Source: Planctomycetia bacterium (lineage in GTDB: Bacteria; Planctomycetota; UBA8108; SXIK01). From it: a DNA stretch of 42,860 nt. Positions 38,994 through 42,859 of the stretch are shown here, in pieces. The notes beneath the pieces were generated by a model. It was not told the DNA's origin, did no database searches, and saw only the letters and a program-made list of their open reading frames with translations. The first letter of the stretch is position 1, and every line of letters starts with the position of its first letter. The DNA is taken from the NCBI GenBank assembly GCA_005772855.1, contig SXIK01000176.1:1-42860 (forward strand), given 5' to 3'. The translations under genes were made by a program, and so were the position numbers.

Positions 38994-39280
38994 GCAAGTC
39001 CACGCGGCAACCTCGCGAGCCCCGGCCCGCACCGATCTGACCACAACCTGGTTGAATCGTACAATGGCAGGCTTGAGAGTCCCTGCCTTCCCCTGTTAGT
39101 TGGAATTTTCGTGACGGCAGCGCCAGGACGCAAGGGCCTCCTCCAAAGGTCTGGGAGTAAGTCCGCAGTGACGCGAAGGGCCTTCAGCTGCGTCGCCCAG
39201 GTATACCTCGCGCGCCCACACGTGAGACATTCCGAATGGGCAGAGGAGGACCATCTCAAGTCTTCTGCTCTTTTCTGCTG
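38994..39280. other. Non-coding stretch with a promoter, leading into the hairpin array
   Basis: I see no convincing gene here. It holds a predicted promoter (39037-39065), then a small GGCAGG/CCTGCC stem (39066-39087) at the expected transcript start. The reading frames crossing it on both strands show no family resemblance. Confidence 0.5.
39037..39065 (+). promoter_or_regulatory. Predicted sigma-70 promoter with no protein gene directly downstream
   Basis: CTGACC (39037-39042), exactly 17 bases, TACAAT (39060-39065). Transcription would start near 39072 and run into the hairpin array and the decayed DUF4338 gene, so the product may be a non-coding RNA or a relic. Confidence 0.45.
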
Positions 39281-39544
39281 GTGGGGGAGGCGGACCCTCC
39301 CCCACGACGGCTCGCCGTCCGAGCGGAGGGAGGGCGGAGGCAACAACGCCACGCGGCCCATCCGGTCGCACGCTGCGCGTGCGCCTCCGGGCCAGGCTCT
39401 CGGGAGCCGCCAGCTCTCGCTGGCGCCGGCTCCCTCCGAGCCGTTTGCGGCTCCGCCAGCGCGCCGCCAACCCCCGCCTCCGCGCCGGATGGGCGCCGGG
39501 CGCCTCTGGCGCGAGCAGCCGCCACCTTTCGCAGGCTGCAAAAG
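39281..39544. repeat. Array of seven GC-rich hairpins
   Basis: Successive inverted repeats within 264 bases: GTGGGGGAGG/CCTCCCCCAC (39281-39305, perfect 10 bp, loop 5); GACGG/CCGTC (39306-39319); GCACGC/GCGTGC (39368-39382) nested in CCGG/CCGG (39363-39390); GGGAGCCG-CCAGC/GCTGG-CGGCTCCC (39402-39434, 13 bp with a 3-base bulge, loop TCTC); GAGCCG/CGGCTC (39438-39453); GCGCC/GGCGC (39500-39512); CTTTCGCAG/CTGCAAAAG (39526-39544, one mismatch). Reading frames across it give only low-complexity Arg/Pro/Ala. It ends about 20 bases before recognisable DUF4338 coding sequence. It may be a structured RNA, a mobile-element end or a repeat family; which one is not known. Confidence 0.6.
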
Positions 39545-39566
39545 GTCTCTTCACTGCCCGCGTGCG

Positions 39567-40057
39567 GTATATATTGGCTACAAGCCGTTGTCGGGAGACC
39601 CAATTCGGTACCTGGTTTTCGGCGACGGGAACCTCCTGGCCGCTCTGGGCTTCGGATCTGCTGCCGGAAGATCGCGCCACGGGATCGCTTCATCGGCTGA
39701 TTCCTAGAGCAGCGCAGGAGAAACATCCACCTCGTTGTGAACAATGCTCGCTTCCTGATCTTCCCCTGGGTGACATCGCGGAATCTGGCTTCGCGAATCC
39801 TCGCCCGTGTGCTCCAGGAGCTGCCGCTCGCCTGGCAAGAGCGCCATGGGTACCGGCCGGTTCTACTGGAGACCTTCATCGATCGGGACCGCTTCCGGGG
39901 AACCTGCTATTGGGCAGCCAATTGGATCTTGGTAGGCCAGGCACAGGGTTGCGGGAAGCTGGATCGAAAACACGAGCGCTCACTGCCAGTGAAGGACATC
40001 CTTCTTTACCCACTCCACAAGCGCTTCCGTCAGAAACTGCTCGATTCCCCGCAGTAA
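39567..40057 (+). pseudogene. Decayed DUF4338 (DruA-like) gene fragment
   Basis: The encoded fragment reads YIGYKPLSGDPIRYLV and GDGNLLAALGFGSAA in one frame to 39665. A single-base loss there (GCC-GG for GCC-TGG) moves it to the frame that continues KIAPRDRFIG. An in-frame TGA follows at 39698-39700 where the family has Trp. The same frame then runs on, LEQRRRNIHLVVNNARFLIFPWV, to a normal-looking C-terminus (KDILLYPLHKRFRQKLL). DUF4338 is the domain of DruA in Druantia anti-phage systems and also occurs as stand-alone, often multi-copy genes. The N-terminal half is missing and the hairpin array sits in its place. ATG/GTG starts at 39737 would allow only a 106-aa remnant. Two independent lesions make decay more likely than sequencing error. 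Confidence 0.75.
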
Positions 40058-40288
40058 GCTGACGGACGGGAACGGGTTTACTGAATGTTTACGGCCTGTG
40101 GGGCAAGTCCGAAGCGCTAAGGCTATTTGCGGTTCCTGAAGTCGTGGCGCGCAGGTAGGATGGCGAAGTTCCGCGCAGAAAAGTGCAAGATGTCGTGACA
40201 GATAGCTGAGCTGCGTCTCATCGCTCAATATCGGACATCCAGCGCCCCCACTTGATCCGGCGAGCTCTGAGAATTGCACATACCGGCC
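40058..40288. other. Intergenic region without recognised gene
   Basis: Between the decayed gene and the end of the convergent surface-protein gene. A short direct repeat GTTTAC-(5)-GTTTAC-like (about 40076-40093) is the only feature noticed. Confidence 0.3.
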
Positions 40289-42859
40289 CTACCGCCCACA
40301 CCTCGACGCACACTCGCCCAGCCCGTCCGCGGTCGGATCCCCTCCGCAGCCGAACGGACCCGGCGTCGGCGGCGCGTCCCCGCCTAGGAACAGGAACGCC
40401 AGCGTGTGCACGCCGTCGGAGATGTCGACCTTGCCGTCGTCGTTGGAATCGCTGGAATCGCGGCAAGCCGGAACTGCACCGCCGAGGAAGAGAAAGCCGA
40501 GCGTGGCAACAGGATCGGAGATGTCGACCTTGCCGTCGTCGTTGGTGTCGCCCCGGCGGAAACCTCGCGCCAGCGGCGGTGTGATGGTGACCGTGCAGCG
40601 CGGGCGCACCGAACGCGAAACGCCCACCGCGCCGCGCACCTCGTAGGCATATTCGCCCGGCACGACATCGAGGTCGACAAAGCGCTCGGCCGCTCCCGAG
40701 AGTGTCGTGACCAGGACCTCGTTGCGGTAGACGTAGAGCTCCTCGTAGAGAACGGGGTTGTCCCATTCCAGCACGGCCGCCGCGCTCTGATCTTCGTCGT
40801 CGAGGTGGACAGCCCGGCAAGCGAGGTTGACGGGACACGGGGCGCCGAAGTCGCAGGCGCGCGAGTCGTTGGTGGGATCGAGGTCCTTGAAGTTGTCCTC
40901 CAGGCGCACGACCAGCGTCACCGGCTCGTGCGGCGCCTCGACCTTGAGCTCGACGACGGTGCTCGAGCCTGGTGCAAGAAGGGACAGGCGGCTGGAGTTG
41001 GCTACCTGACGCTCGCTGCCATCTTCGGAGCGGTAGAGGACGCGTACCCTCGGCTGCGGACCACGCCGATCGTGGACGGCGGAGCTAGTGAGCCCGAGGT
41101 TCTCTACCTGCACCGTCACTGTGACCATCGCTCCGGGAGCAGCGAAAGGGTGGCTCAGCTTGCAGCTCTCGATGGCGAGGTCGGGGCCGATCGAGAAGTC
41201 GGCCGTTTGGTAGCCCGATGGCGCCACGCCGCCTCCGGCGCCCGCGCCGACTTGGAGGCCTCGCCGCACGCGCTGGGACGAGGCGCCCTGGTCGAGGTAC
41301 ACCGTGTGGACCGAGCCCTGCGGCGTCAAGACTGCTTTCGGATTGGTGATGGTGCGGCTGCCGTCGGTCATCCGCATCGGCGCCGTCCATTCGCTCGCGC
41401 CGCCGCCCAAGGCGGTCATCATTAAATCACCGGTGCTGGCGCGCGTGCCCGGCAGGCCGCGCTGGCTGAAGAGAATGACCGCGTCGGGACCCTGGAGAAG
41501 GATCGAGTCCGCTGGATCGACCAGCTCGGGAAGCTCCCAGAAGACCTCGTGGTCCCAGGCGTAAACGGGCGCATCACAGCGGCCGCGGATGCGCACCGGA
41601 TCGTCGAACGTGATGCCCTGCGTGCCCTCCTCGCGAAAGCGGGTCGTGTAGAGGTAGCGCAGTCCTCCCATGCCCGTGTCGTTGGGCTCCGAGCCTTCCG
41701 GCACCGCCGTCCAGGCGATGAGGCCTTCCAGGAGCTCGTCGTCATTGTAGCCCATGGCGATTCTCGGCTCGAGGATGCCAGGGAAGCGGTCGAGGATCTC
41801 CGGCGGCACGGCGGGGACGGGAGTGCTCCAGGTAGCTTGCGCGTTGCGGCGCCAGCGCGAGAAGAGGAGGTTGCGGCCGCGGTTGTCGTCGACGAGATTT
41901 TGATGGAGCCCATCGTGCACCCAGACGCAGGCGGCGTCTTGGCCGTCACGCGTCATCGCCACGTCTGGCTCGATGTTGATGCCGCTCGTCGACAGTACAA
42001 GCGGAGCCGCCGGGCTTAGGGTCGTAACGCCGCCCGCCGCCGAGACGCCAAGGCGGCGGGCGACGATCTGGGTCGAGGTCAAATTCGGCTGCAGATCGCG
42101 CACCACCTCGGTCTGGTAGCGTTCGCGCGGGTCGCAAGAGCGACAGGTGGTGACGATGGTGCGCATCCCACGGTCGACGAGGAAGTCGCCGCCGTACCGC
42201 ACCCAGGCGACCCAGGCTTCGCCGCTCTCGGCGGAGGCGGCGAGGCTCGGGCTGCCATCGGCGCGCCAGTCGGCGATATTGGTTGACGGCTCGGAGATGT
42301 CGACGCCGGAATTGCGGAACGCCGCGAAATTGTTGGTCGTGGGGCCGATCGCATGAACGCGGATGTTGGCTCGGGCGGCGTTGCGGTTGGAGGGTCCAAG
42401 GTAGGACGCAGGATTGGCGGGATCGAGCGGCGGAATGGGCAACTCGAGGGACGATCCGTTGGTCTCGGTGAAGGCCATGAAGGCGACGTCGTCCGCGATG
42501 TACGCGCCCGATGGATCGAGGAAGTAGGGGTTGGCGCCCGTGACAGCGAATTGAAAGTCGCGGTCGTGAGCCCCGCGCTGGCGAATATTGAGGATGCCTC
42601 CTGGCGCCGACGGCTCGCCGGCCGGGTCGGCGCTCATCCACACGTCGATGAGCGTGTCGCCGGAGGGCGAAACGACGGTCTCGGGGATCGAGATGAGCTC
42701 GTGGACGTTGATGAGCTCGAACACCGCGCCGGCCCCACCGCCATCGGTCCCACCCGCACCGCCGTCCTCGCCCGGGCATTCTCGCGACGTCGACTCGCCG
42801 CACTTCTCGATGCAGCTTGGGCAGACGCAATCGAACGGTGGATTCGGGCACTCGAAGAT
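40289..42859 (-). CDS. Large secreted surface protein with CARDB, fibronectin-like and dockerin domains (5' end outside window)
   Basis: The - strand frame is open to the right edge, so the start lies beyond it and about 857 residues are visible. The visible N-terminus is Cys-rich (FECPNPPFDCVCPSCIEKCGE) followed by a Gly-rich linker. Next is a long region, about residues 45-560, of beta-rich repeats with WVAWVRYGGDF, AACVWVHDG and LIAWTAVPEGSEPND, resembling propeller or sialidase-like repeats. A CARDB-type domain follows (DLAIESCKLSHPFAAPGAMV... VENLGLTSSAV), then a fibronectin-like domain, and two dockerin repeats (FRRGDTNDDGKVDISDPVATLGFLFLGG and SNDDGKVDISDGVHTLAFLFLGG). The tail is PPTPGPFGCGGDPTADGLGE. 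It appears more G+C-rich than its neighbours by eye. Confidence 0.82.
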   Translation of the reverse strand: MFECPNPPFDCVCPSCIEKCGESTSRECPGEDGGAGGTDGGGAGAVFELINVHELISIPETVVSPSGDTLIDVWMSADPAGEPSAPGGILNIRQRGAHDRDFQFAVTGANPYFLDPSGAYIADDVAFMAFTETNGSSLELPIPPLDPANPASYLGPSNRNAARANIRVHAIGPTTNNFAAFRNSGVDISEPSTNIADWRADGSPSLAASAESGEAWVAWVRYGGDFLVDRGMRTIVTTCRSCDPRERYQTEVVRDLQPNLTSTQIVARRLGVSAAGGVTTLSPAAPLVLSTSGINIEPDVAMTRDGQDAACVWVHDGLHQNLVDDNRGRNLLFSRWRRNAQATWSTPVPAVPPEILDRFPGILEPRIAMGYNDDELLEGLIAWTAVPEGSEPNDTGMGGLRYLYTTRFREEGTQGITFDDPVRIRGRCDAPVYAWDHEVFWELPELVDPADSILLQGPDAVILFSQRGLPGTRASTGDLMMTALGGGASEWTAPMRMTDGSRTITNPKAVLTPQGSVHTVYLDQGASSQRVRRGLQVGAGAGGGVAPSGYQTADFSIGPDLAIESCKLSHPFAAPGAMVTVTVQVENLGLTSSAVHDRRGPQPRVRVLYRSEDGSERQVANSSRLSLLAPGSSTVVELKVEAPHEPVTLVVRLEDNFKDLDPTNDSRACDFGAPCPVNLACRAVHLDDEDQSAAAVLEWDNPVLYEELYVYRNEVLVTTLSGAAERFVDLDVVPGEYAYEVRGAVGVSRSVRPRCTVTITPPLARGFRRGDTNDDGKVDISDPVATLGFLFLGGAVPACRDSSDSNDDGKVDISDGVHTLAFLFLGGDAPPTPGPFGCGGDPTADGLGECASRCGR
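40416..40545 (-). repeat. Two identical 31-base segments encoding the dockerin loops
   Basis: Bases 40416-40446 and 40515-40545 are identical over 31 positions, 99 bases (33 codons) apart, and encode the calcium loop NDDGKVDISD of each dockerin repeat. Identity at silent positions suggests recent duplication or gene conversion. Confidence 0.75.

What the first reader, a model, noticed from the sequence alone, without database searches (positions are those of the whole stretch)
39281..39544. Tandem GC-rich hairpins with no protein product
At least seven stems lie within 264 bases, two of them long (10 bp perfect; 13 bp with one bulge), in a place where no reading frame looks like a protein. 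A sigma-70-like promoter (39037-39065) points into it. Density and order go beyond a normal terminator. It could be a structured non-coding RNA, the end of a mobile element, or a genomic repeat family.
Basis: seen in the sequence. Interest (0 to 1): 0.6.

Follow-up and report, generated by a model that had tools for sequence, protein, structure and literature searches.

The report
High-copy mobile element carrying conserved hairpins
The cluster of hairpins is the inside of a 370-base non-coding jumping element that is scattered roughly 90-140 times through this planctomycete genome, and its hairpin core recurs, with matching changes on both sides of the stems, in other planctomycetes and one putative myxobacterium inside repeats with different ends.

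Summary
The hairpins are real: the stretch folds at z = -4.85, with a perfect 10-bp stem and a bulged 13-bp stem. The stated coordinates are only the interior of a larger unit at 39202-39571. That unit has sharp ends and imperfect terminal inverted repeats (TATACC...GGTATA, 21 of 30 matches). It occurs about 90-140 times in its own 5-Mb genome, in short (~178-275 bp) and long (~305-411 bp) forms. It has no protein family or Rfam match, and no autonomous partner was found. It is best read as a MITE-like non-autonomous transposon, probably inserting at TA.

The hairpin core is more unusual. A three-hairpin cassette recurs in other Planctomycetota, including two genomes outside this order, and in a MAG labelled Myxococcales, each time between different ends. 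Its stems covary (30 both-side changes against 9.6 expected; 0 of 500 shuffles). A second block, hp1-hp2, keeps one fold while its stem sequences turn over completely. Individual copies in this genome decay without clear regard to the stems, so the structure seems preserved in the spreading lineage rather than at each site. RNA versus DNA function is untested.

The parts
39202..39571 (+). Whole MITE-like element, long form (370 bp), family A
   Evidence: Sharp common ends across copies
39202..39231 (+). Left terminal inverted repeat TATACCTCGCGCGCCCACACGTGAGACATT
   Evidence: 21 of 30 positions match the right end; 0 of 20000 shuffles as good; 89 left ends in own genome with <=3 mismatches, control 0
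39542..39571 (-). Right terminal inverted repeat (TATACCGCACGCGGGCAGTGAWGAGACC read from the end)
   Evidence: 91 right ends in own genome, control 0
39238..39270 (+). Sub-terminal hairpin GGGCAGAGGA/TCTTCTGCTC
   Evidence: Fold of window copy and consensus
39281..39305 (+). Hairpin GTGGGGGAGG-N5-CCTCCCCCAC, first hairpin of the cross-genome cassette (model R2)
39320..39340 (+). 11-bp minisatellite site (unit GAGCGAGGGYG); the window copy is a low-repeat form, others have up to about five units (coordinates approximate)
   Evidence: Alignment of full-length copies
39355..39393 (+). hp1: GGCCC / bulged T / 7-bp stem CGCACGC-TGC-GCGTGCG / GGGCC
39395..39442 (+). hp2: outer stem GGCTC/GAGCC, 2x3 internal loop, 7-bp basal stem, 3-nt 3' bulge GCC, 6-bp apical stem
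   Evidence: Same architecture in nearly all of 36 distinct copies from three genomes
39443..39471 (+). hp3: GTTTGCGGC...GCCGCCAAC (consensus GTTTGCGGC/GCCGCAAAC), decayed in this copy
39483..39513 (+). GCGCC...GATG...GGCGCC and GCGCC-TCT-GGCGC hairpins, decayed in this copy; counterpart of the third cassette hairpin
39515..39539 (+). Hairpin GCAGCC...GGCTGC
39572..40086 (+). Right-hand neighbour, not part of the element: remnant of an IS66-DruA element (DruA/DUF4338 pseudogene and IS end GGGAACGGGTTTACTGAAT)
   Evidence: 95% identical to G000:C63 (L071) from exactly 39572

Best explanation
39202-39571 is one copy of a MITE-like, non-autonomous DNA transposon. It has imperfect terminal inverted repeats, carries no gene, and occurs about 90-140 times in this genome. 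It was most likely cut and pasted in trans, probably at TA dinucleotides, by a DDE transposase (IS630/Tc1-like by analogy) whose gene was not found in the assembly. Its interior is a modular array of GC-rich hairpins. The cassette (GNGGGGGAGG-hairpin, GGCCGCG-ACA-CGCGGCC hairpin, TGATG-loop hairpin) and the hp1-hp2-hp3 block that turns the short form into the long form both occur in other planctomycetes between different ends. Stem sequences there have changed on both sides while the fold stayed. Shown: repeat family, ends, inverted repeats, copy number, shared structured interior, covariation. Inferred: transposition mechanism, TA target, and that the fold helps the element spread (as single-stranded DNA or as transcript) rather than serving each host locus.
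For: 42 scored matches, with ends at positions 3 and about 372 of the query in the complete copies. Sharp ends and unrelated flanks. 89 left and 91 right ends with no control hits; 41 correctly oriented pairs of 178-411 bp. Inverted repeats 21/30, 0 of 20000 shuffles. Junctions with a second repeat family share one TA: GGTA-TA-TACTCC, GGAGTA-TA-TACC; the intact IS66-DruA copy reads CACTA|TATTGG at the insertion point. No Rfam match; no protein family over the array. Cassette covariation: 97.2% of cells paired, 30 both-side changes vs 9.6 +/- 2.2 shuffled (0/500), 0 in slid controls. hp2: native -27.0 vs -20.2 kcal/mol for arm-swapped hairpins. Patchy but multi-copy distribution: 5 of 392 Planctomycetota genomes, 11-37 copies in five of seven genomes re-searched.
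Against: No transposase bearing these inverted repeats was found. The single IS630-type gene has unrelated ends. No left-right pair of ends spans a gene, though the assembly has 244 contigs and many break inside copies. No target duplication is detectable statistically beyond the possible TA. One copy nested in another copy (L114) sits where the consensus has no TA. In the window the left flank is not IS66 sequence, so the junction is not a clean insertion into the IS66-DruA remnant.
Confidence: 0.82

Rival explanations
1. It is a structured non-coding RNA gene or 3'-end (terminator-like) RNA element that the host uses, multiplied across the genome.
For: Covarying stems across genomes. In G332 the array's right end abuts the stop codon of a gene on the opposite strand at a near-constant 69-71 nt in 8 of 12 copies, and in 17 of 20 G332/G393 loci the next gene is convergent.
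Against: In the window's own genome copies show no consistent gene orientation. Changes break stems freely and G-T equals A-C (58 vs 52). No Rfam match. The only promoter-like match is outside the repeat. Transposon-like terminal repeats and copy number favour mobility.
Confidence: 0.2
2. REP/BIME-type palindromes moved by a Y1 (RAYT) or other HUH transposase that reads the hairpins in single-stranded DNA.
For: Small bulged hairpins in many copies; hp1 has a conserved bulged T and hp2 a 3-nt bulge. The hp1-hp2-hp3 block alone interrupts a kinase gene in G005 (L158).
Against: No Y1 or Y2 transposase in the window's genome; Y1 also absent from G001, G005 and G007. The unit has long terminal inverted repeats, unlike REPs, and no GTAG tag was seen.
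Confidence: 0.12
3. The compensatory stems arise without selection, by template switching that re-perfects palindromes during replication or by exchange of whole hairpins between arrays.
For: Stem sequences differ wholesale between copies whose surroundings are similar. Individual copies decay near-neutrally.
Against: The outer stem, the 2x3 internal loop and the bulge keep position and size across genomes while both paired arms change. A palindrome-perfecting process would be expected to remove bulges.
Confidence: 0.3
4. A chance cluster of GC-rich stems in a high-GC genome.
For: 77% G+C locally.
Against: z = -4.85 with 0 of 200 shuffles as stable, and about 90-140 homologous copies.
Confidence: 0.01

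Closest known systems
Bacterial MITEs with 5'-TA termini: Correia/NEMIS, ERIC, RUP (review PMC2229807)
   Same: Small, non-coding, multi-copy, terminal inverted repeats, TA at the ends, transcript predicted to be highly base-paired; RUP is attributed to an IS630-type transposase
   Different: 370 bp, very GC-rich, with a modular hairpin array whose core is shared with repeats that have other ends; no matching transposase seen; sequence not compared with those families here
REP/BIME palindromes (PMC3733652), including those reported from Planctomycetes
   Same: Many small palindromes in compound arrays; stems vary with complementary changes; intergenic, sometimes inside genes
   Different: REPs are 20-40 bp with GTAG or CGTC tags, the GTAG class often linked to RAYT; here there are long inverted-repeat ends, a fixed multi-hairpin order and no Y1 gene in the genome
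Rickettsia palindromic elements (RPE)
   Same: Palindromic mobile-looking units that can lie inside protein genes (compare L158)
   Different: No sequence relation tested; here copies in the window's own genome are intergenic (0 of 42 spanned by a predicted gene)
IS630 / Tc1-mariner elements
   Same: TA target, inferred
   Different: The one IS630-type copy in the genome has inverted repeats AGTGCCGTCTTTCATAAG..., unlike TATACC...

Membership tests
MITE | Short (50-500 bp) and without coding capacity | tested here: met
   178-411 bp; no Pfam match over the array
MITE | Terminal inverted repeats | tested here: met
   21/30, 0 of 20000 shuffles
MITE | Dispersed multi-copy with sharp ends | tested here: met
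MITE | Target site duplication | tested here: inconclusive
   Nothing beyond a possible TA; one nested copy does not fit a TA in the consensus
MITE | Autonomous relative with the same inverted repeats | tested here: not met
   No end pair spans a gene; the only IS630-type gene has other ends. Assembly fragmented; not strictly required for type II MITEs
REP/RAYT system | Y1 (RAYT) transposase in the genome | tested here: not met
   PF01797: 0 matches in G000
IS630 derivative | Inverted repeats match an IS630-family element | tested here: not met
Known structured RNA family (Rfam 15) | Score at or above a family's gathering threshold | tested here: not met
   0 matches in the window; nothing credible at relaxed threshold
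Structured RNA (generic) | Compensatory base changes supporting the helices | tested here: met
   does not distinguish RNA from single-stranded DNA
Structured RNA (generic) | Transcribed | not testable with these tools
   No expression data
Intrinsic terminator | GC-rich stem followed by a run of T | tested here: not met
   Single weak hit at 39245-39266, at chance level (1 found, 0.7 +/- 0.9 expected)
DruA-driven element | DruA gene lies inside the same inverted repeats | tested here: not met
   DruA sits in an IS66 element with different ends (ATTCAGTAAACCCGTTCCC)

The most novel reading that the evidence does not exclude
A conserved structured nucleic-acid module (three-hairpin cassette plus hp1-hp2 block) spreads between genomes and is carried by transposon-like ends of unrelated type. 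Its fold, not its sequence, is selected because it does something for the element, as single-stranded DNA or RNA; in some planctomycetes it has been placed systematically at the stop codons of genes.
Probability: 0.3. Interest if true: 0.78.

Novelty: new variant of a known kind. Interest (0 to 1): 0.52.

Why it matters
MITEs and palindromic repeats are common, but their interiors are usually thought of as decayed leftovers. Here the interior is the conserved part: the same folded module recurs in distant planctomycetes, and in one MAG labelled Myxococcales, between different ends. Stem covariation in the module, alongside near-neutral decay of individual copies in this genome, suggests selection acting on the mobile lineage. 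That makes a general question testable: do hairpins inside non-autonomous elements help them transpose or survive? In practice it also matters because copies of this repeat sit at many contig ends of this assembly, and neighbouring fragments such as DruA could be wrongly assigned to it.

Tried and rejected
(1) Protein: all frames over the array have no family match; the DruA match belongs to the neighbour. (2) DruA as driver: DruA lies in an IS66 element with different ends. (3) IS630 driver: one gene, unrelated ends. (4) Y1/Y2 HUH driver: none in this genome. (5) Long autonomous copy: no end pair of 0.6-30 kb without other ends between them. (6) Target duplications longer than TA: no statistical signal. 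(7) Rfam: no match at the gathering threshold; relaxed matches are not credible. (8) An exact hairpin-1 pattern in genome contigs found nothing; a second 25-mer found four places and none in viral contigs. (9) Plasmid and phage records: no match. (10) Strand preference from wobble pairs: none within family A. (13) Literature: no paper describing these elements was found in the held library.

Full report
Observation. Window 39281-39544 folds far better than its shuffles (-166 against -140.5 +/- 5.25 kcal/mol, z = -4.85). It is the only strongly structured stretch of 38.6-40.4 kb. No frame over the array matches a protein family; the only signal, DruA, begins at the right edge. Rfam has no match. 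The promoter-like site 39037-39065 exists but is outside the unit described next.

The real unit. A search of the window's own genome (5.03 Mb, 244 contigs) with 39200-39600 gives 42 scored matches; the complete copies begin at query base 3 and end at about base 372. Flanks on either side are unrelated. The element therefore spans 39202-39571. Its ends are inverted repeats, TATACCTCGCGCGCCCACACGTGAGACATT against TATACCGCACGCGGGCAGTGATGAGACCTT: 21 of 30 positions match, reached in 0 of 20000 shuffles. Pattern searches find 89 left ends and 91 right ends, with zero control hits. They form 41 proper pairs 178-411 bp apart. Because many contigs end inside a copy, the true number lies between about 90 and 140. 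Full-length copies differ by an 11-bp minisatellite (GAGCGAGGGYG) and by presence of the hp1-hp2-hp3 block: the common 224-bp form lacks it.

Insertion. Ordinary target duplications are absent. TA is the likely target: junctions with a second ~105-bp repeat family (B, ends TATACTCC/GGAGTATA) share a single TA, for example GGTA-TA-TACTCC and GGAGTA-TA-TACC. In the window the right end abuts an IS66-DruA remnant exactly where the intact copy (L071) reads CACTA|TATTGG. One nested copy (L114) does not show a TA in the consensus target, so this stays inferred. The window's left flank is not IS66 sequence, so a deletion or recombination has followed. DruA is not the driver: it lies in an IS66-type element with ends ATTCAGTAAACCCGTTCCC. 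The only IS630-type gene has different ends. There are no Y1 or Y2 transposases in this genome, and no pair of ends encloses a gene.

Relatives. A covariance model of hp1-hp2 finds at least 68 copies in this genome, 36 in G005 (another family of the order) and 5 in G001, and none in 26 other genomes of the class. In G005 the block sits between ends of another type (AGAGCCTRTCCCARWAR...), and in L158 it interrupts a Ser/Thr-kinase gene on its own. In nearly all of 36 distinct hp2 sequences the fold is the same: outer stem, 2x3 internal loop, 6-7-bp basal stem, 3-nt 3' bulge, apical stem. The basal stem occurs in more than a dozen paired versions. Joining arms from different copies costs 6.7 kcal/mol on average (-27.0 to -20.2).

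A second model (R2) covers the three-hairpin cassette GNGGGGGAGG-N5-CCTCCCCCNC / GGCCGCG-ACA-CGCGGCC / GCCGCY-TGATG-RGCGGC. It matches 5 of 392 Planctomycetota genomes, two of them outside the order (G146, G332). Re-searched together, G000, G007, G146 and G332 have 37, 17, 22 and 25 matches; the two genomes reached through an exact 25-mer have 11 (G393, Planctomycetota) and 3 (G392, labelled Myxococcales). On 25 distinct sequences 97.2% of pair cells are paired and 30 have changed on both sides, against 9.6 +/- 2.2 in shuffles (0 of 500) and none in slid structures. The alignment was fitted to the model's structure, which leans the counts towards it, but 30 double changes is well beyond the controls. 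The ends differ from genome to genome. In G332 the right end meets the stop codon of a convergent gene at 69-71 nt in 8 of 12 copies, and 17 of 20 G332/G393 loci have a convergent gene on that side.

Selection at the copies. Across 107 pieces of family A, changes occur at 2.4% of paired and 3.4% of unpaired positions. 177 of 246 single changes break a pair. G-T outcomes (58) equal A-C outcomes (52). Inserted copies therefore show at most weak constraint and no favoured RNA strand. The between-genome covariation must then come from the lineage that keeps spreading, or from a palindrome-repairing process; the conserved bulges and internal loop argue for the former but do not prove it.

How it most likely works. 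Shown: a dispersed, non-coding element with inverted-repeat ends and a folded interior shared with other repeats. Inferred: movement in trans by a DDE transposase at TA, with the hairpin interior helping the element at the single-stranded DNA or transcript stage. In G332-like genomes the array may in addition act at gene ends, as a terminator or stabiliser; this was not tested.

Known kinds. By size, ends and lack of genes it meets the MITE description and resembles the TA-terminated Correia, ERIC and RUP elements (PMC2229807). It is not a REP/RAYT system: the Y1 transposase is absent and the ends are long inverted repeats (PMC3733652 for the definition). The new part is that the interior, not the ends, is what is conserved. 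No description of these repeats was found in the held literature.

Limits. Several genomes are fragmented MAGs; the Myxococcales assignment rests on the record's title; gene contexts come from a simple codon-based predictor; no expression data were available.

Noticed in passing
window 39572-40086: Remnant of an IS66-type element carrying a DruA (DUF4338) gene, 95% identical to the longer copy at G000:C63 (L071), where DruA is followed by an IS66-like transposase and small ORFs.
   Followed up: partly
L024, L093, L094, L016, L038, L075, L080, L087, L025: Second small repeat family B (~105 bp, TATACTCCKCGYGG...CCCCCGCGAGGAGTATA) often abutting family A; longer B-type units with a hairpin array also exist (L168-L171, L173, L174).
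   Followed up: partly
L192, L205, L217, L229-L240 (G332): Hairpin arrays in a distant planctomycete abut the TGA stop codon of a convergent gene at a near-constant distance (69-71 nt in 8 of 12 sampled copies); flanking CTCAG/CTGAG may be a 5-bp target duplication.
   Followed up: partly
L158 (G005:C121), around 617-760: hp1-hp2-hp3 block without terminal repeats interrupts a Ser/Thr-kinase gene between the codons for GGMG and VVYEAEQ.
   Followed up: partly
L179 (G000:C110): Hybrid element: left part resembles the G001/L187-type end (GAGCCNGAGCAA...GCTCAGGCTCTG), right part is family A, suggesting exchange of modules.
   Followed up: no
L186 (JAHFDS010000095.1) 1440-1620: Cassette in a MAG labelled Myxococcales, starting at the stop codon of one gene and followed by a convergent gene; could be real spread between phyla or mis-binning.
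   Followed up: partly
window 40289-42724 (-): Large predicted secreted protein ending in two DxNxDGxxDISD (dockerin-like) repeats; the homologous motif appears in G005 L064.
   Followed up: no
G000 contigs: Many contig ends coincide with copies of this repeat, so it is a likely cause of the fragmented assembly.
   Followed up: partly
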